Notes under the pieces: generated by a model
What the model was told of the DNA's origin: nothing
The model's input: the letters and a program-made list of their open reading frames with translations, nothing else
The model's database searches: none
Position numbers and translations under genes: made by a program
Shown here: piece after piece, positions 2,953 to 15,584 of the stretch
Layout: every line of letters starts with the position of its first letter
Numbering within the stretch: position 1 is the first letter of the stretch
NCBI RefSeq assembly: GCF_027921745.1
Contig: NC_079238.1
Span: forward strand, 620,001 to 684,000
Direction: 5' to 3'
Source: Schizosaccharomyces osmophilus
Lineage: Eukaryota > Ascomycota > Schizosaccharomycetes > Schizosaccharomycetales > Schizosaccharomycetaceae
DNA: 64,000 bases

Positions 2953-3024
2953 GCTTACATGGTCCAGTGGTTAAGACTCATCCTTGTGGCGGATGCGACC
3001 CAGGTTCGATTCCTGGTGTGGGCA
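2953..3024 (+). tRNA. tRNA-His (GTG anticodon)
   Basis: A 72-nt cloverleaf can be folded. The acceptor stem GCTTACA pairs with TGTGGGC, including two G-U pairs, and the discriminator is A. The anticodon stem CATCC/GGATG holds the loop TTGTGGC with anticodon GTG. The T-arm contains the B-box GGTTCGATTCC at 3003-3013. A run of five T at 3031-3035 is the likely RNA polymerase III terminator. No intron. As in other eukaryotes the extra 5' G of tRNA-His is not encoded. It stands just upstream of a 5S gene at the edge of the wtf island. Confidence 0.95.
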
Positions 3025-3143: not shown

Positions 3144-3262
3144 GTATACGGCCACACCTAGGCGAAAACACCAGTTCCCGTCCGATCACTGCAGTTAAGC
3201 GTCTGAGGGTCTCGTTAGTACTATGGTTGGAGACAACACGGGAATCCTGGTTGCTGTAGGTT
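3144..3262 (+). rRNA. 5S ribosomal RNA gene, left copy flanking the wtf island
   Basis: A 119-nt match to fission yeast 5S rRNA, with the conserved core GGCGAAAACACCAGTTCCCG and the internal control region (GTTAAGCGTCTGAGGG, then GTACTATGGTTGGAGACAAC). Stem I is GTATACGGC against GCTGTAGGT with one mismatch. A T6 run at 3268-3273 is a good polymerase III terminator. Compared with the S. pombe sequence as I remember it there are several substitutions, in the 5' end and around the CCTGGTTGC segment, so reduced function cannot be excluded. The promoter core looks intact. Single dispersed 5S genes are normal in Schizosaccharomyces. Confidence 0.9.
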
Positions 3263-3589
3263 ATCACTTTTTTATTTTACTTTTTGCTTCTCTTTGTTAC
3301 TCTTTTAAAAATTGAAGCACATGGCTTTCGTGATGATCGACATAGACGTTTGACTTAGTGATACTAGTGATTGCAAGGAAGCAATGGTCATCCATGATTC
3401 AATAATTAATTAAATTCTTTATTAGTTATAAATTAAAAGGTTCTATAAGGATCAGTGATTAAAAGCGTCTGACGAATAAATATAAGAAACAAAATGCAAA
3501 GATGAAACATAAACATAAGCAAAAGCATGCTGGAGAAAAATCGAAAAGACCGGACATTATAAAAAACAATGCTTTACTTTCCGTATAAA
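3263..3589. other. Intergenic, AT-rich
   Basis: About 330 bp between the 5S gene and the 3' end of the wag-like gene. Apart from the 5S T-run at its left edge and an A/T-rich stretch suited to a 3' UTR, I see nothing in it. Confidence 0.6.
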
Positions 3590-4415
3590 TCAATTCCCAC
3601 CGCTTTCAACATCCCTAGACTGACCCGGTTCCTGGCGCAACCCTGGAGATTGCTCAGTATGTTCAGAGGACGGTTGTTCGGCAGTATTATCACTACGATC
3701 GTTGGATTGATTTTCAGACTCTGCCGGCATAGTGCTTAGTGGGATCCAGTTACCATCCGTCGAGTCGTTTCTTTCCGACGACATCCTGAAACCAAGAGCA
3801 GCAATAATCCAAGAAACAATCCAAGCAATCCCAGAAAGCACTAAAGCAATAAAATCCAGCAACACTATAAGTACCCCATTAGTAAACATATCAAATTAAA
3901 ATTCCACCATTCCACTTACGTGAAAAAACAAATAAGAACATATAGAAAGCCACGACGAAAAAAACAACTGCTACAATAGCTTGAAAGTTTACCCCTGCAG
4001 ATCCTGCCATCGATTCCTTTATAAAGGGGACAAGGTATTTGTATGAAAACCAAAAGTCCAATACGATTGGACCAATAAAGCACCAACCAAGCCGAAGAGG
4101 TTCATTCTCCTGTCTTCCTTGTGCTTCAGGAATTCTCGCAATTTCTGCCGGCCAGAAAATCAACCACAATAATGCCGTCAAGACATTTCGTAAAAAAATA
4201 AAGAATCCATTTTCTCCTGCCATGTTGGTAGACGCTTCTTGATGTCTGTTTTCTGAGTACGGAGGTGCATGACCTTTTTCCAAGTCGTCTAGATGAGAAT
4301 TAAAGATTTCATTGTACCGTGGCAGTTCACCGTCAAACGTTGCAAGAGTGCCCAAGCGAGGAACGTCAGCTGAATCAGCATCTTTTAGCTTTTTGTATTT
4401 GTTTTTTTCAGTCAT
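3590..4415 (-). CDS. Wtf-associated (wag-like) multi-pass membrane protein
   Basis: Two exons, 4415-3920 and 3864-3590, separated by a 55-nt intron (GTAAGT donor, TACTAAT branch, TTATAG acceptor); 256 aa. Six codons upstream lies another in-frame Met. I chose the inner one because it gives MTEKNKYKKL, which resembles the MKNKY start of the wtf protein encoded divergently 1 kb away. The N-terminal third is soluble and contains a PPxY motif (APPYSEN). Then come hydrophobic segments (FIFLRNVLTALLWLIFWP, VAVVFFVVAFYMFLFVF, a long one across the splice junction), then a polar Ser/Glu/Gln tail. Position, divergent to a wtf gene and between 5S copies, matches what is known as wtf-associated (wag) genes in S. 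octosporus and relatives. Function unknown. The resemblance to the wtf N-terminus could mean shared ancestry or shared sorting signals. Confidence 0.65.
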
Positions 4416-5467
4416 TTTCTGAAATTCCTTCAAAACCTACTCAAATAGGCAGTAAACACCCAAACTCATGTCAGAACTTTTAAAACAGTAGCACACATCT
4501 GATCCGACTAACAATCTTAATAAAATCTACTTTGTAACAATTCTCAACTACATGAATCGAGTCCACAATGGCAATGACTAGAAGTTTGCAGTGGTGAAGC
4601 TGTCATCCACCCTCTCTGACACACATACCGATAGCTAGTAAGCGTACGCTATTCTATATATATTTACAATGAATGAACAGTCCGAAATCGCTTTTGTTTG
4701 TTTCTATCGTGTAATCAAAATAAATTAAATAAAAAGAAATATGTCACTATAAATGTCGTTCATTATGATTTTCCATATTTACAGCTACACAAGTATTGTA
4801 TGACACTTCTGATGGGTCTTGGGAACATTATAAAACAAGCGTCGAACCTTTCCCTTTCGCTTTCTTGTTAAATGACTGATTGTGTAAATAATCATATTTT
4901 CATTCAATTGGGATTCTGCTTTTATACCAGTGGACCAATTATTCTCAAGTTTAGGATCTAATTAACGAAATGAAAACTGTGAAACCTGTTAAGCCAAAGT
5001 CACAGAACCTTCCAATACAAAGATATGCATTTCTAATCCTGCTATTTATAATTTAAGCAAACAGCATGGTTGTTTTGCCAAATGTTCCTTTGTTTACTTT
5101 TTGTAATAAACGACGATTCTTTTGGATTATACTATTACGACAAATCGCAATAAAAAACCAACGTTGAATAATCGTAACGAGGACTGTGACCAGTCAGTGA
5201 CATAATGTCGCAGCTTTATGAATTGAGACATGCGAAAAGCCATTACCAAGATTTTTTCAAACTCGCATCTTTGGTTTTAAGGGAACACTCGTGTTGCAAA
5301 ACAAATTTTGCTTTTAAGCAAGGTCCAATTCCTTTTTTTGACAGATTTTTGACAGATCCTTGAAAAGTAGAACCAGTTCCTACGGACTTTTCTCGGCGAT
5401 TCAAAAGTTGATTTCGTTTAGAGGGTAACTATCGGTGTTATTTTGGGCTATAATTGCCATTGTAAAT
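4416..5467. promoter_or_regulatory. Shared divergent promoter region of the wag-like and wtf genes
   Basis: A 1.05-kb intergenic stretch with no credible ORF. Both flanking genes must be transcribed out of it. It contains one exact forkhead/FLEX site (5089-5097, listed separately). Nothing else could be assigned. Confidence 0.5.
5089..5097 (-). promoter_or_regulatory. FLEX/forkhead site (GTAAACAAA) between the wag-like and wtf genes
   Basis: TTTGTTTAC on the plus strand is the exact reverse complement of GTAAACAAA. This is the FLEX core bound by the meiotic factor Mei4 and related forkhead proteins (Fkh2, Sep1) in S. pombe. It lies about 370 bp upstream of the wtf start and about 670 bp upstream of the wag-like start. 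Mei4 control of wtf transcription is established in S. pombe; use of this site is inference. Confidence 0.5.
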
Positions 5468-6604
5468 ATGAAAAACAAATATACTCCTATTTCAGATTCT
5501 GATGACTCTTCCAAAACGCTCAATGATGAAAAGGCAGATAGTCAGTCGTCTCCTTCTGATGGTACGCCTCCTCCGTATTCAGGTAAGATTTGTTGAAATA
5601 GAAAGGAAAGGTTTATTCTTTGTGTTCTTGTTTGAACGGCTCATGATGGAAGAATCATGCTTGTTTATTTGATTGTTGGGTTTGAATTCAATCACCTGGT
5701 CGATAACTGTCAGCAAGCGCGACAAACACCTCTATCCTTTCGTAAACCACGAAAAAACAGTTACCAATACATCCATTAGTCTCAAAAAAAAATGTTGATC
5801 TCGAAATGGCTCCTGAAACAGAAGAAAGTTCTAAAAAGAAAAGATATCTGACGCCTCGTGAATTAGCAATTGTTTTTGCTATTTTTATTGTATATAATGT
5901 ATGCTTGATTATTGCGAGGGTCATTCTTCTTGTTTACGAAATTCCGTTTAATCAGCTTGCCGTTTGGGTACTTTTTGGCGTTTGGTGCGCTCTATTTCTG
6001 TCATTGACAATTGGTAAGAAACTAATTTCAGGATTTTTAATGACTCACTAACTATTAGTAATAACTCAAATGCCTAAAGAATGGTTCACGCAAGCTGGAA
6101 GAGCAACCAAAAAGATTCTAAAGAAATTTGGAAGAGCAACCAAAAACGTATTGTCAACTATGTGTATCGCAGCATTATATGTGTGTTTTCTCGATGTCCC
6201 CGGTTTCACCTTGTATTATGCTGCAAAGAAGTTCTCAGGATTTGAAAAGATAAACAACAATTTTTTCTATGCTGTTTGTTTTGTTAACTTTGTCTTGTTT
6301 CTTTATTTGACGAGTATGTCATACACCCGCGAAATATTCTAACTCTTCTAGTGAATGCAAATGCGCGTGAACGACTTAGATTAGTAGTCTTCGATATGGG
6401 AAACGGCATAGGAAGCGGCATAAATGGCTTAGGAAACGGAATAGGAAATGCTGTAGATCATATGTTCGGTATGTACACTTGGTAAATGCTTCCTATCACG
6501 AGGCGTTATTAACCTATTAAAAAGGAACCAATCGAGGAGAGCAAGTATCTCAGAACGAAGGAATCGAACTTCAGCCTCTTGCTGCGCAAAGCGCCGAAGT
6601 TTAA
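5468..6604 (+). CDS. wtf: wtf-family spore-killer/antidote-type membrane protein, appears whole
   Basis: Five exons: 5468-5582, 5780-6013, 6080-6313, 6352-6468, 6525-6604. All introns are phase 1, the family's usual arrangement; 259 aa. The first exon starts MKNKYTPISDSDDS and ends in the PPPYS motif, both family hallmarks. The body has several hydrophobic segments (AIVFAIFIVYNVCLIIARVI, VWVLFGVWCALFLSLTI, FYAVCFVNFVLFLYL). It then has a Gly/Asn-rich loop (MGNGIGSGINGLGNG) and a polar tail ending LQPLAAQSAEV. wtf genes of S. pombe and S. octosporus are meiotic drivers or their antidote/suppressor relatives, and PPxY motifs direct the long form to endosomes and vacuole through Rsp5-type ligases. 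Only the long reading is supported here, so I cannot say whether this copy drives. The acceptor of intron 2 is the least certain boundary. The family is estimated at more than 100 million years old. Confidence 0.85.
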
Positions 6605-7056
6605 GTTTTACCGAGTGCTTTCATTCTTTATATTTCGCTCCTTCTTTGGAAACATCGATGTCAATTGCAGTCTACCAAGTTCCTGCATTCGCTTCCACAA
6701 AAGCTTGGATCAGATGAAACCAGCAGACTTCAATTGCTTTTTTCATTTCTCTTTCATAAATCTTCTTATTCGTTTCACGGCATCGTTCATTTTCTTCATG
6801 AATAGACACCCTTTTTAATGATTATATCATCGTAATTAACTAGTTTTTTACTCGAAACTGTGTCGTGTCTTTCATTAATTGTAAGAACGAAAGTGATTAC
6901 CGCCAGAGGTAAAATTCATTCACAGCATACAAAGCACAAATCATCAGGTTGGAAGCTTCGATTGATGTAGTTTAAAACATTGAATTATCGTTTACTTTGG
7001 GAGTCAAGTCGACGGACCATTATTAAATAGAATAACCTTTACAAAACACAATAAAC
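6605..7056. other. Intergenic between the wtf gene and the 5S-like copy
   Basis: About 450 bp, AT-rich, without an ORF of coding character. I see no LTR remnant or tRNA in it. Confidence 0.6.
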
Positions 7057-7186
7057 GTCTACGGGCACATCTAGGCGAAAACACCAGTTCCCGTCCAATC
7101 ACTGCAGTTAAGTGAAAACGTCTGAGGGTCTCGTTCGTTTCGTACTATGGTTGGAGACAACATGGGAATCCGGGATGCTGTAGGCT
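7057..7186 (+). pseudogene. Variant 5S rRNA copy with two short inserts, probably a pseudogene
   Basis: About 130 nt matching 5S rRNA along its whole length, in the same orientation as the copy at 3144-3262. Two short inserts are present: TGAAAA after GTTAAG, and CGTTTC replacing a single A after CTCGTT. Both fall within or beside the internal control region, so TFIIIA/polymerase III recognition and folding are probably impaired. Elsewhere it is nearer to the S. pombe sequence than the left copy (GTCTACGG start, CATGGGAATCCGGG). A long T-run follows at about 7193. The two inserts are partly complementary (GAAAACG against CGTTTC). It bounds the wtf island on the right. Confidence 0.75.
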
Positions 7187-9295
7187 CCTTTATTTTTTTT
7201 TTTTACTTTATAATAGCAGCTAAAGGGTGCGTTTACGAAATCTATGACCTTGGTAAACTTCTTGCAAACGCTAGTTTGCTCGACTTGGACCAGTACCAGC
7301 TCTGCTTTTGGGATGAGGAAAATCGTATCCTGCTCTTGCATTTCTCATATTTTATGAAATGAATCACTGACATAAGGGAAAAATTATGCATAAAACTTCC
7401 TTTTTCCTTCAAGCATGATCAAAATAAGAAGTGATGTTTAATGATGCATTCGTAGGATTACAAAACTAATAAAAATATCATTAGCCGCGATAGAAAACGT
7501 AGTAGCACTGACCGAAAAGTAAATAGAAAGAAAAAAAAAAAAAATCCCGATATGCAAACTCTTAAACTAAAGGAAGATTGGTAATATGCACTCTATAGGG
7601 ACAATAGTTGGGTGTGAAAAGAGAACCCTCAGGTGAATCAAAATTACCCACTAACCCTTTTTATAAAGACATGAACAAGTACGAAACTTTGATCACTTTG
7701 GATCTCTTGACTTTATAAAAAGACTTAGGATCGGCGATCTCTAGCACACCAAGGTTTCCCAGTTTCTTCCAAACTACGCTTGATTACATGTAAGCCAAGG
7801 ACCAAAGAGTTTCTCCCAACAGAAGTGTAAAGATTTAAGAAAAAAAAGAATTGCATTTACGATTGTTGGAACGTACATTGTGTCAACGAGTCGATTTTTG
7901 ATTCTTTCCTGCATGTATCTCTCTACATGAAGAACACAAGCGGCACGGTCAAAGCACCGACAAAAAAGCCAAAATAATTGCGCAAATATTGATATCAATA
8001 TGTCTCTAAACGTCCATAGAATACAAAAGTCTACAGACCAGAGCTTAATCAGCCAATAGCTATCCCCATACGACAAAACGTCAAGGGACGCTTATTGCTA
8101 CCACAAGATCTAAGTAATAATGAAGCTTGAGTAGGCTGGAAAGCAAAGCGACAAAAGATACTCTTTCTCTGTCAAACCACTCTCACTCAGGTCAAAGAAA
8201 TCCTCCTACAAAAAATACACTGCGATCTGCGCAAGTCACTTTCAAGTCCCACAGATAGTCGTTATACTTTCCTTAAAAAATAGCTCCGCTAGGGAACATT
8301 GACGAAGCAGAAGATCCACATCCACCAACTCGGCAGTACCATTGGTATCCAAGTTTCGTCAATGTCTCTAAAAGGAACGTGTAACACACTATTGTAGACA
8401 TTGAAAGTGGTAAGAAAAATCAGTTTTACTAACAAGTCCTCCAAGGTACAGTGATTCCATGGAGAACATCTGCTGAGGAAAGTGGGAAGACGGAAGAAAG
8501 ATATTAGGATATTTACCTCTTGATCGCTTTTCCTACACAGCGCTGAATATGAAAAGAACACTTGGGTTACACAAAGGTCTGCTAGACCTCCCGTCCAGCA
8601 AATGAAGTTTGGAAGAAGGAGTTCCTTTTTCCATTCCTCAATCCTTTGTATACTAAGAAGACAGTATACTGCAGAAATGAAATCGTAAATATCGTTCAAA
8701 TTTTTCCTCTCTTTCTCTCTCGTACTTTCATGCAAGCCCTAAAGAATCATAAAAACCAACACCTCGTAATTCTTCTTTCAACTGGGATACTGGTTCTTGT
8801 TTACTTTTCACGGCGCGTCGTGCGTAGTTCACGCCTGTTCGCTCACCGACTGGCTTCATAGTACGTCAAGGTAACAGTGTAAACAAAAGACGGATTCTAA
8901 AAAAAGGATGAACAGTAGGTATACGCTACTCCCAAGGATTTAAGGAAGTAAAAGAGACACATTTAGTATGTATAGAAGCTCGTCTTTCTTTTCAAACGTC
9001 CAGAGTAATGTCGTTTGTCAGGTTTTCAATAAATTACTATAGAACTCGGCTAGGAATTTAAAATCATCAAACTCCGAGTTCTGTATTAAAAGCAAAAGCA
9101 TGATTACACTGGTTTTTTTTGGTTTTTTTTTCTTTTTTTTCTTTACTACTCTCTGCAATTCCTTTATTATTACCCTATATATGATGCTTCACTAAGTGTT
9201 TACACTCACGTTGTCATGGCAATTTAACTGCTACGCGACTTATTCAACGAAAAACAAACCAATATTAACAACTTTGCTTTTTCGATACATAAAGA
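7187..9295. other. 2.1-kb gene-poor stretch with unassigned open frames
   Basis: Between the variant 5S and rho4 I recognise no gene. Two minus-strand open frames (8289-8735 and 7774-8076, both hydrophobic and Trp/Phe/Cys-rich) have no recognisable motif and no splice scheme I could make convincing. They may be noise or remains of an old gene. One forkhead-type site GTAAACAAA lies at 8879-8887. Poly-T tracts interrupted by G or C at about 9110-9145 may be nucleosome-depleting promoter sequence. S. pombe, as I recall, has rho4 directly beside pep5, so this stretch is part of the inserted island. Confidence 0.5.
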
Positions 9296-13115: not shown

Positions 13116-15062
13116 TCACTGCATTGCTGAGGCTTCTTTGCTGTAGGGAATTTTATGAATTTCGCAATATGCCGGTCCGACTGTAACATACTTCCAGTTG
13201 GGTGAATGTTGGTACAGATTTTGAAGCTGATTTTGCTTCATATAACGGGCTTTGATTAGCCTTGCTTTGTCTTTAATATGAGTAGGTGTGAAATGACTTA
13301 AAGGCTTGTTATCAATTCTCTGAATGTAAACAATTTTTGACCAGCTGCAACCGTATTGTTCTATCATATTAAACACTTCACGCTCTTGTTCTTCCGTCCA
13401 CTTCCTGCGGAGCTTATAACCTTCGTATGGAGAATCCTGTCGCCGTGATTCAGAGCGTCCTTCAGCCTTTTCCGTAGACGTTCTCATTACAACTGTCCTA
13501 TTAGAATTAGACTGGTCTTTCAAAGAAGAATTTCGAATTGGCGGAAAATCCTCATCCTCTTCTTCAACACTAGAAACGTCGGATACGGCATTAGGGTTAA
13601 CATTGACTGAGAATCGATTTTGAACTGAAGGAGCTCTTTGCTCATTCGTTGTATTTTTTTCACGCTCCTGTAATGATTTAATTCTCTCTTCAATTAATTT
13701 CAAAAGTGAAGACGCTTGATTATGAACAGAGGTGATGGTTTGCTCAGATAGCGATGCTACAGCGATAGATAACTCTTCGGAAATAGATTGCAATACTTCT
13801 ACTTCAGAAACATTTGTATCATTTATCTTTTTCCTGTTGGTACTTGAAGATTCAATTGTATCCTCGTATACGTTAGACGGTGCTGCCTCTTTTGGTTGCG
13901 TTTCTGAATTTTCATCTACCTGTTCGCCAGCCTGGGATTGAAAGACGGGCAGATTGTCCGCTTCTGTTTCAGAATTGATATGATTCTCCTCGCCAGCATC
14001 TAAGGTATTTTTTTGCAAAGGCTTTTCGGGCTCTTTTCCAGGAGGACTGCTTGACATAGATACTCTTTTTCGTAAACGAGAGAGAAGGTCATAGTTTTCC
14101 GGATAGGCTGTTAATTTCTTCGGTCCGAAAGAAGTGTTGTGTAACCGTCTTACAGATTGGGAGTCAGTAAGAAAATCAAACACAGTGATCACGAATTTCC
14201 GATATGGGTTTATTTCTTTTGGAGGAGAGGATATGCATTTTTCGATAATACCTTTCAAATAATCAAAGATGTTTTGCTTCTTCCAAACAGACCTTCCCAC
14301 ACTGTCTAGGGCAGCCTGGGATTTGTAAGGAAGTAAAGTGAATAAAAACTTCTCGGGATTCTTTTTGTAGGGAAACGTATTAGAAAAACAATAACGTGAC
14401 ACTAGTTCTTCAAACAGTCGCAATGCAGCGGTATAAAATGAGGAATCTTCATCAACCACGAGTAAACTGTCTATGACGATTGCCATCAAAACAAAATGCT
14501 TATTACTTACATCAAAGAGATCAATTGTCCCGGTAAAAAACTGAATCTCACTCAATTGAATTTCCGCCATCTCAAACAACTTCTGGTAAGGCTCGTTTGC
14601 TTGGATATATGAAAGGAAAACTGTTATGTCTAATCCATATGTTGATACTAGGTCATTCGAAAAGTCTCGCACCTTGGTAAGAAACTTATCATCAAATTTT
14701 TCAAAGTAATTTTGTGGCCCATCAATCCGAAAAGTAAACTCTGCGAATACATCGCAGAAAACCTTTGACATTTCATAAGCTAAATTGGCCAACAACGGGC
14801 AATCCTTTGCCATCTTTGAAGCACGCTCAAAGTCCCATTGATAACCAACATTGGCATTTCCCTCTGGCTGCTCCATCATACTTGGATTACTTGATACATT
14901 GGCTTTATCCACCGGGCCTAGCACGTCGGATCCCTCGCCATTCGCGTCCTCTGGAAAATTGGGGTTTTCATTTTTTTCTCCTTTAGAAGCTATGTTCTCT
15001 AATTTCTCACTTTTTTCGGCTTTCTCGTTTGCTTTCCTCGATAAAGGAGACGCTTCTGACAT
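13116..15062 (-). CDS. taz1: Taz1 telomere double-strand DNA-binding protein (TRF family)
   Basis: A 648-aa single-exon protein. The C-terminal Myb/telobox domain starts near residue 552 (RRKWTEEQEREVFNMIEQYG) and ends with IKDKARLIKARY in place of the usual VDLKDKxRN telobox helix. The region around residues 75-330 is helical and fits the TRF homology (dimerisation) domain. A Ser/Glu-rich linker lies between. Taz1 binds telomeric repeats, recruits Rap1, limits telomerase and supports the meiotic bouquet. Length is close to that of S. pombe Taz1 (about 660 aa) and the gene sits beside nse2 as in S. pombe. The upstream region holds two tandem forkhead sites. Confidence 0.92.
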   Translation of the reverse strand: MSEASPLSRKANEKAEKSEKLENIASKGEKNENPNFPEDANGEGSDVLGPVDKANVSSNPSMMEQPEGNANVGYQWDFERASKMAKDCPLLANLAYEMSKVFCDVFAEFTFRIDGPQNYFEKFDDKFLTKVRDFSNDLVSTYGLDITVFLSYIQANEPYQKLFEMAEIQLSEIQFFTGTIDLFDVSNKHFVLMAIVIDSLLVVDEDSSFYTAALRLFEELVSRYCFSNTFPYKKNPEKFLFTLLPYKSQAALDSVGRSVWKKQNIFDYLKGIIEKCISSPPKEINPYRKFVITVFDFLTDSQSVRRLHNTSFGPKKLTAYPENYDLLSRLRKRVSMSSSPPGKEPEKPLQKNTLDAGEENHINSETEADNLPVFQSQAGEQVDENSETQPKEAAPSNVYEDTIESSSTNRKKINDTNVSEVEVLQSISEELSIAVASLSEQTITSVHNQASSLLKLIEERIKSLQEREKNTTNEQRAPSVQNRFSVNVNPNAVSDVSSVEEEDEDFPPIRNSSLKDQSNSNRTVVMRTSTEKAEGRSESRRQDSPYEGYKLRRKWTEEQEREVFNMIEQYGCSWSKIVYIQRIDNKPLSHFTPTHIKDKARLIKARYMKQNQLQNLYQHSPNWKYVTVGPAYCEIHKIPYSKEASAMQ

Positions 15063-15584
15063 TTTTCTTCGTTTTCACCGTTCCAAATCTGTCAAAAAAT
15101 CTTTTTGTATACGTTTTCTCGTTTTAATTGTAAATGAAGAAAAAATCGACTATACAAAACTGTCTAAATGAAATCATCCATCGACTTTTTTCTTGCTCTG
15201 ACATCGAATTTGGTGTTGTAAATCATTGCGTTGCATGTCACCATTTTATTTTACGAAACGAAAAGATATGCAGTGCAGCCCTTGTTTGTTTACATCTTTG
15301 TTTACAGTGATGAAGGAAAAGAAAATATAAGAAATTCTTAAAGTTTCATGTGAATTAATTTCTGATTTTTTCTACTATCAGTATCTTAGTGAGATGCTAG
15401 TTAGTACTCTACTTCATTCCGTTTGGACACTTACGAGTCCTTTGAACAAGTTTTATGAAGTGAAACCAGCTTGTGGCTCAATTCATTGAGGATTTATTAT
15501 ACTGTAGAATTGCGCAAGGAGAGATAAAACAGAAAAATTTGTATTGGGGAGAGTGCACAAAAGGATTCCTCTAGACTAGAAGAT
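15063..15584. other. taz1 upstream region
   Basis: About 520 bp between the taz1 start and the 3' end of the 304-aa gene. It contains the tandem forkhead sites listed separately. Nothing else was seen. Confidence 0.55.
15285..15305 (-). promoter_or_regulatory. Tandem FLEX/forkhead sites upstream of taz1
   Basis: Two exact copies of GTAAACAAA on the minus strand (15285-15293 and 15297-15305), 12 bp centre to centre, about one helical turn. They lie 220-245 bp upstream of the taz1 start and in the direction of its transcription. Such spacing would place two forkhead proteins on the same face of the DNA. Binding by Mei4 (meiosis) or Fkh2/Sep1 (M-G1) is inference. Confidence 0.55.

What the first reader, a model, noticed from the sequence alone, without database searches (positions are those of the whole stretch)
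3144..7186. 5S-flanked divergent wag-like/wtf cassette inserted between vps11 and rho4
A 4-kb unit runs 5S, wag-like gene (minus), wtf gene (plus), 5S-like copy, in an interval that in S. pombe, as I recall it, has no such genes. The two 5S copies are direct repeats, so recombination between dispersed 5S genes could move, duplicate or delete the unit. Association of wtf genes with 5S rDNA and with wag genes is known for the S. octosporus group; that this locus is such a unit is read directly from the sequence.
Basis: partly seen in the sequence, partly recalled or inferred. Interest (0 to 1): 0.8.

Follow-up and report, generated by a model that had tools for sequence, protein, structure and literature searches.

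The report
5S-flanked wtf spore-killer gene unit
A fission-yeast chromosome carries a probably intact selfish spore-killer gene and a companion membrane-protein gene between two copies of a ribosomal RNA gene; this arrangement is already published as a type, and the mildly new point is that the companion protein's front end resembles the spore killer's antidote tail.

Summary
Two direct 5S copies (3144-3262, 7057-7186) enclose a divergent pair: a predicted two-exon membrane-protein gene (minus, 4415-3590) and a predicted five-exon wtf gene (plus, 5468-6604). The wtf gene looks like an intact poison/antidote gene: open frame, four phase-1 introns, one PPPY motif in the antidote tail, an in-frame exon-2 ATG (5806), Gly/Asn/Ile repeats in exon 4. 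It lacks a confident FLEX motif. Its tail matches the (recalled) S. pombe Wtf4 tail (0 of 20,000 shuffles as good), but Pfam WTF is far below cutoff. This is the 5S-wag-wtf-5S unit of De Carvalho et al. 2022, who also proposed 5S-mediated spread; the kind is known. Insertion at this site could not be tested: no other Schizosaccharomyces genome is held. The 5S copies differ at 9 of 119 positions plus two insertions, so the pair is not fresh. Most novel lead: the Wag tail resembles the S. pombe Wtf antidote tail (12, or with the first 50 residues 1, of 20,000 shuffles as good), while the rest of Wag shows no similarity to Wtf. Wag may be an antidote-like relative; unproven.

The parts
2953..3024 (+). 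tRNA-His (anticodon GTG), just outside the unit
   Evidence: ARAGORN; Rfam
3144..3262 (+). 5S rRNA gene, left copy, followed by a T tract
   Evidence: Rfam 92.7 bits; T tract read
3590..3864 (-). wag-like gene, predicted exon 2 (last membrane segment, Ser/Gln/Glu-rich C-tail, stop)
   Evidence: splice sites and frame
3865..3919 (-). wag-like gene, predicted intron, 55 nt, GTAAGT...TACTAAT...TAG
3920..4415 (-). wag-like gene, predicted exon 1: N-terminal tail with PY motif LPRY (aa 31-34) and near-motif APPY, then membrane segments
4416..5467 (.). shared intergenic region between the divergent genes; FLEX-like site GTAAACAAAGG at 5087-5097 (minus, 2 mismatches, not significant alone)
5468..5582 (+). 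wtf exon 1: antidote-specific tail, one PY motif (PPPY, aa 34-37)
5583..5779 (+). wtf intron 1 (197 nt), expected site of the poison promoter; best FLEX-like site 5658-5668 (minus) has 2 mismatches
5780..6013 (+). wtf exon 2; in-frame ATG at 5806 would start the 219-aa poison
6059..6313 (+). wtf exon 3; 18-bp exact repeat at 33-bp spacing (6096-6113, 6129-6146)
6352..6468 (+). wtf exon 4; Gly/Asn/Ile repeats (GNGIGSGINGLGNGIGN), about 6399-6455
   Evidence: repeat coordinates read by eye
6525..6604 (+). wtf exon 5 and stop
7057..7186 (+). 5S-like copy, right, with 6-nt and 5-nt insertions, followed by a T tract; possibly a pseudogene
   Evidence: Rfam 61.7 bits; alignment; T tract read

Best explanation
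The locus is a 5S-wag-wtf-5S unit of the Schizosaccharomyces octosporus group carrying a probably intact single-gene killer meiotic driver. In meiosis the wtf gene would make two proteins. [quoted passage not shown] A short transcript starting in intron 1 gives a 219-aa poison (ATG at 5806) that lacks this tail. Poison reaching all spores kills those that did not inherit the gene. The flanking direct 5S copies are the likely route by which such units are copied into, or deleted from, 5S sites. Shown here: anatomy, open reading frame and splice sites (predicted, no RNA), PY motif, alternate start, direct 5S repeats. Inferred from published relatives: two transcripts, trafficking, killing and 5S-mediated movement.
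For: Five exons of 115/234/255/117/80 nt with GT..AG introns, all phase 1 by the exon lengths, no internal stop. Single PPPY in the tail, as published for the intact antidotes of S. octosporus, S. osmophilus and S. cryophilus (PMC10721834, passage). In-frame ATG near the start of exon 2, as in most intact wtf genes of these species. The tail aligns with the recalled S. pombe Wtf4 tail at score 82, reached by 0 of 20,000 shuffles; that recalled tail itself hits Pfam WTF at 96.6 bits. Gly/Asn/Ile repeats in exon 4 resemble the published IGNXXXG repeat. Gene order and divergent wag-wtf orientation match the published unit. 5S-mediated duplication, and a wtf31 presence/absence difference between two S. 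osmophilus strains, are published.
Against: Pfam WTF scores the whole protein at only 7.7 bits (cutoff 25, E 3.8), below three unrelated membrane families, none of which reaches its cutoff either (best XK-related, E 0.01); the tail alone gives no Pfam match. PMC9562144 reports 16% identity for the best S. pombe-S. octosporus pair, so a miss is not decisive. No FLEX match with 0 or 1 mismatch in intron 1; of 28 intact S. octosporus genes without a confident one, 14 still have short transcripts. Codon use does not separate coding from antisense frames in this window, so gives no independent support. The right 5S has two insertions. No RNA data and no second Schizosaccharomyces genome. The confidence below is for the unit type and a gene coding for both poison and antidote; that it really kills spores is less sure (see the first rival).
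Confidence: 0.85

Rival explanations
1. The wtf gene is antidote-only or dead as a killer: the frame is intact but the poison transcript is not made, because intron 1 lacks a FLEX (Mei4) site, or the poison is inactive, so the locus acts only as a suppressor or not at all.
For: No FLEX match with 0 or 1 mismatch in intron 1. S. osmophilus wtf19 poison did not inhibit S. cerevisiae growth although it was cloned as a putative poison (1 of 5 tested).
Against: The exon-2 ATG is intact, and 14 of 28 intact S. octosporus genes without a confident FLEX still have short transcripts.
Confidence: 0.25
2. The unit is an old resident of this locus (present in the group's common ancestor and lost elsewhere), and the two 5S copies are old neighbours, not the mark of a lineage-specific insertion.
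For: The copies differ at 9 of 119 aligned positions plus 6- and 5-nt insertions. PMC9562144 says losses of 5S-associated wtf genes likely also contribute and reports 26 wtf loci in synteny between S. octosporus and S. osmophilus.
Against: 31, 12 and 2 wtf loci are published as species-specific in S. octosporus, S. osmophilus and S. cryophilus, and 5 of 6 and 11 of 12 wtf-less syntenic sites hold a 5S. None of this concerns this locus in particular.
Confidence: 0.35
3. The wag-like gene is an unrelated membrane-protein gene that travels with wtf, and its PY motif and tail resemblance to Wtf are convergent.
For: No similarity between Wag and Wtf bodies (4293 of 5000 block shuffles score as high). 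No Pfam WTF match for Wag or its tail; the best Pfam matches are other families below their cutoffs (DUF4870, 18.1 bits, E 0.0028; tail DUF5663, E 0.058). The published PSI-BLAST-based work called wag an uncharacterized family. Wag's tail is not close to the neighbouring Wtf tail (score 37, 442 of 20,000 shuffles). With PY sites masked only KNKY stays aligned (score 27). A [LP]PxY motif arises in 2.6% of shuffled Wag tails.
Against: The alignment with the recalled Wtf4 tail covers KNKY, LPxYN and PPYSEN in order; 12 of 20,000 (97-residue tail) or 1 of 20,000 (first 50 residues) shuffles reach it, and 0 of 2486 background windows do. The window Wtf tail, a likely true member, also fails Pfam, so that test is weak.
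Confidence: 0.6

Closest known systems
5S rDNA-wag-wtf(-5S) units of S. octosporus, S. osmophilus and S. cryophilus (De Carvalho et al. 2022, PMC9562144)
   Same: Order, divergent wag/wtf orientation, tandem 5S flanks, five-exon wtf with exon-2 start, Gly/Asn/Ile exon-4 repeats; single PY motif as in PMC10721834
   Different: Right 5S copy carries two insertions; an exon-3 repeat with 33-bp spacing, a feature PMC11892871 says is not broadly conserved in the family; no confident FLEX. Whether this exact locus is in their tables could not be checked (no look-ups of supplements allowed)
S. pombe wtf drivers (wtf4, cw9)
   Same: Antidote tail starting MKNKY (recalled) with a PPYS-type PY motif, several membrane segments, alternate poison start, 33-bp exon-3 repeat spacing
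   Different: Five rather than six exons, one PY motif rather than two or three, 5S rather than Tf LTR flanks, no confident intron-1 FLEX, low sequence identity
S. osmophilus wtf31 presence/absence locus (PMC10085805)
   Same: wtf gene flanked by tandem 5S genes, which the authors invoke to explain its presence or absence between strains
   Different: There two strains were compared; here only one sequence is available

Membership tests
wtf gene family (octosporus-group type) | Five-exon gene with intact frame | tested here: met
   Exons 115/234/255/117/80 nt, introns all phase 1, no internal stop; criterion. Predicted, no RNA data
wtf gene family (octosporus-group type) | In-frame alternate ATG near start of exon 2 (poison start) | tested here: met
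   ATG at 5806, 26 nt into exon 2; criterion
wtf gene family (octosporus-group type) | Single conserved PY motif in the antidote tail | tested here: met
   One [LP]PxY, PPPY at aa 34; criterion
wtf gene family (octosporus-group type) | FLEX motif in intron 1 (present in only part of the family) | tested here: not met
   Best site has 2 mismatches. Not obligatory: 20 of 48 S. octosporus, 1 of 2 S. cryophilus and 0 of 31 S. osmophilus intact genes have a confident one
wtf gene family (octosporus-group type) | 7-aa repeat in exon 4 | tested here: inconclusive
   GNGIGSGINGLGNGIGN resembles the published IGNXXXG repeat but is short and imperfect
wtf gene family (octosporus-group type) | Sequence homology to known Wtf | tested here: inconclusive
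   Tail versus recalled Wtf4 tail: 0 of 20,000 shuffles as good. Pfam WTF below cutoff (7.7 of 25 bits), tail alone no match. Published non-pombe Wtf sequences not available here
wtf gene family (octosporus-group type) | Poison/antidote activity and drive | not testable with these tools
   Needs expression and crosses
wag gene family | Lies between a wtf gene and its upstream 5S, divergent from wtf | tested here: met
   Minus strand 4415-3590, between 5S 3144-3262 and wtf 5468-6604; criterion
wag gene family | Sequence similarity to published wag genes | not testable with these tools
   No wag sequence in the sections and passages read; no look-ups of supplements allowed
5S-mediated mobile unit | Single 5S and no wtf at the syntenic site of a relative | not testable with these tools
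   No genome held. Wag exon 1 in viral and prokaryote contigs, and the unit's DNA in plasmids, gave no usable match

The most novel reading that the evidence does not exclude
Wag is a hidden Wtf relative, or carries a captured Wtf antidote tail: a PY-tailed membrane protein that keeps the two-site S. pombe-type tail (KNKY, LPxYN, PPYSEN in order; the second site degenerate, APPY) but has no intron after the tail, hence no wtf-style poison promoter. The 5S-wag-wtf-5S unit would then be two divergent members of one selfish family, a killer beside a dedicated PY-tailed antidote-like or trafficking partner.
Probability: 0.35. Interest if true: 0.6.

Novelty: new member of a known kind. Interest (0 to 1): 0.3.

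Why it matters
It is a clean example of a published arrangement by which spore-killer genes are thought to spread on dispersed 5S genes, so its own weight is modest. If the Wag tail resemblance is real, wag genes stop being passengers of unknown role and become candidates for a second antidote or trafficking component of these drivers, which laboratory yeast could test directly.

Tried and rejected
Searches for relatives: Pfam for both proteins gave only matches below cutoff. PDB, Wtf only: 0 matches at E up to 1; Wag was not searched there. Wag exon 1 (not Wtf) was searched in viral contigs (10 pattern matches, none a relative) and prokaryote genome contigs (78 pattern matches, 1 called a relative). 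That one hit (L001, a Bacteroidetes MAG, 32% identity over query residues 118-173, a hydrophobic stretch) I judged a chance match without further test. The unit's DNA had no near match in plasmids.

A decayed gene between the right 5S and rho4 was considered: one minus frame of 149 codons (8289-8738) is open, which 13 of 1000 Markov simulations reach, but its codon score is negative. Pfam finds nothing in two ORF pieces or in parts of the three minus frames (plus frames not searched), and candidate introns gave no obvious intact gene by eye. Left open as chance or relic.

Wag body versus Wtf body: no similarity. AlphaFold model of Wag exon 1 alone: mean pLDDT 62, pTM 0.31, judged too poor for a fold search.

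Species assignment: not achieved. 'Octosporus group' is inferred from the wag gene and the 5S link, which the papers report for those species and not for S. pombe; no call names the source.

Papers opened without use: PMC3491379 and PMC4097366 (one passage search each, only gene lists). One search was a listing only.

[quoted passage not shown] pombe Wtf4 protein; a yeast spore-killer family protein, identity checked only by its Pfam WTF match. Typed from reading the window: a Dad1-like ORF with two residues misread. Exons of wtf and wag were joined in scripts (wtf again in 48), and the joined proteins or pieces of them typed into; ORF pieces of the 7200-9050 region were typed into. Masked and shuffled copies of the tails and of the Wag body were used as controls. 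The structure job used one uninterrupted window stretch, including nine residues read from the intron. Fetched from unnamed sources: none; L001 came from a named MAG record and was not used. Calls answered with an error: 3 (no genome held; I then relied on papers for cross-species statements), 30 (term too short; replaced), 66 (term too short; not repeated, that paper, PMC13160552, was seen only in a listing).
Full report
What is there. Rfam, at its gathering scores, finds two 5S genes in the window, both on the plus strand, 3144-3262 and 7057-7186, and one tRNA, a tRNA-His at 2953-3024. The two 5S copies agree at 110 of 119 aligned positions; the right one has 6-nt and 5-nt insertions. The 150 nt before the genes, and the 150 nt starting 20 nt after them (past the T tract), are unrelated (307 and 250 of 500 shuffles as good). 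So the repeat is the 5S gene body and little more. Between them, on the minus strand, lies a predicted two-exon gene (4415-3920, 3864-3590; 256 aa) and, on the plus strand, a predicted five-exon gene (5468-6604; 266 aa), divergent across about 1.05 kb.

The wtf gene. I placed the exon boundaries by hand from splice consensus and frame, then checked them in a script: all four introns are GT..AG and phase 1, with no internal stop. The first exon encodes a tail with one PY motif (PPPY), and an in-frame ATG lies 26 nt into exon 2. The tail matches the S. pombe Wtf4 tail better than any of 20,000 shuffles (score 82). The Wtf4 tail was recalled, not fetched, but it hits Pfam WTF at 96.6 bits. Pfam WTF scores the whole window protein at 7.7 bits, below its cutoff of 25 and below three other membrane families that also miss their cutoffs; the window tail alone gives no Pfam match. 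PMC9562144 (section 6, part 1 of 2) gives 16% identity for the best pair between S. pombe and S. octosporus Wtf, so this miss is not decisive. Hydropathy gives about four membrane segments; PMC11892871 (passage) gives four to eight for functional Wtf proteins. Exon 3 has an 18-bp exact repeat at 33-bp spacing (22 of 33 positions identical across the two units). PMC11892871 (passages) says exon-3 repeats are not broadly conserved in the family; its wtf4 has two repeats and a 66-bp deletion removes them, so a 33-bp unit by my arithmetic. Exon 4 has Gly/Asn/Ile repeats like the published IGNXXXG unit. Intron 1 has no FLEX motif at 0 or 1 mismatch; the best site has 2. In the whole window FLEX-like sites at up to 2 mismatches number 68 against a shuffle mean of 38.5 (0 of 100 shuffles reach 68), but with so many such sites a single 2-mismatch site means little.

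The wag-like gene. It sits where PMC9562144 places wag (between wtf and the upstream 5S, divergent), but no wag sequence was available to compare. It has a canonical PY motif LPRY at aa 31 and a near-motif APPY further on. A PY motif arises in 2.6% of shuffled Wag tails, so the motif alone is weak evidence. Aligned with the recalled S. pombe Wtf4 tail it scores 57 over KNKY, LPxYN and PPYSEN in order; 12 of 20,000 shuffles reach this with the 97-residue tail and 1 of 20,000 with its first 50 residues. Of 2486 sliding windows (65 residues, 5-residue steps) from the other stop-to-stop frames of 100 or more residues in the window, none reaches 57; the best score 43 against the 50-residue tail and 52 against the 97-residue tail. 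Against the neighbouring Wtf tail the score is only 37 (442 of 20,000 shuffles as good). With PY sites masked only KNKY stays aligned (score 27). The bodies show nothing (4293 of 5000 block shuffles as good). Pfam WTF does not match Wag; its best Pfam matches are other families below their cutoffs (DUF4870, 18.1 of 25 bits; for the tail DUF5663, 14.4 of 23.7 bits). I made the comparison after noticing the resemblance, so these figures are not corrected for choice. PMC10721834 and PMC11892871 do not mention wag (0 occurrences in the main texts). A search asking for two of Schizosaccharomyces, wtf-associated gene and wag gene found one paper, PMC9562144. In the sections and passages I read I saw no statement of a Wag-Wtf tail relation; most of the papers' text was not read.

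Surroundings. To the left is a Pep5/Vps11-like gene, to the right a Ras/Rho-type GTPase gene, then Dad1-like and Nse2-like genes and a gene with a weak Myb-like match (18.0 bits, cutoff 24.4). I recall this order as S. pombe SPAC16A10.03c, rho4, dad1, nse2, taz1. Only the description of SPAC16A10.03c as Pep5/vps11 like was confirmed in a paper (PMC5741268, passages). That S. pombe has no wtf here is recall.

How it works. [quoted passage not shown] Of five genes tested in S. cerevisiae (two S. octosporus, two S. osmophilus, one S. cryophilus) four poisons inhibited growth and were partly neutralized by their own antidotes; S. osmophilus wtf19 was not toxic (PMC9562144, section 11). Applied here this is inference.

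Movement. PMC9562144 proposes gene conversion or circle integration at resident 5S genes and reports a 5S at 5 of 6 and 11 of 12 wtf-less syntenic sites (section 10). PMC10085805 attributes a wtf31 presence/absence difference between two S. osmophilus strains to flanking tandem 5S genes (passages). For this locus neither an empty site nor a donor could be examined. The longest exact run shared by the two copies is 26 bp (counted by eye), which argues against a very recent event.

What I read. PMC9562144: outline and abstract, passages, sections 5, 7-11, 16, 28, 32, 38 and part 1 of section 6. PMC10721834, PMC11892871, PMC10085805, PMC5741268: passages only. Other papers named in listings were not opened, except the two noted under tried and rejected.

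Verdict. If the source is one of the three catalogued species, the locus is probably in the published tables, which I could not open. The Wag tail resemblance is the one lead worth following.

Noticed in passing
15283-15305 (-): An exact FLEX (GTAAACAAACA) at 15283-15293 and a one-mismatch FLEX at 15295-15305, upstream of the minus-strand gene at 13116-15074, which has a weak Myb-like match below Pfam's cutoff and may be a taz1 orthologue (recall); suggests Mei4 control.
   Followed up: no
window, whole: FLEX-like sites with up to 2 mismatches number 68 against 38.5 expected from dinucleotide shuffles (0 of 100 shuffles reach 68).
   Followed up: no
8289-8738 (-): A 149-codon open frame between the right 5S and rho4 with no Pfam match and negative codon score; chance or relic.
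   Followed up: partly
3144-3262 and 7057-7186: Each 5S copy has one non-standard pair in the terminal stem (position 3 in the left, position 9 in the right), so it is not obvious which copy, if either, is fully functional.
   Followed up: partly
3920-4415 (-), wag-like protein residue 65: An in-frame Met directly after the PY-bearing tail and before the first membrane segment, which could give a tail-less isoform if an internal start were used.
   Followed up: no
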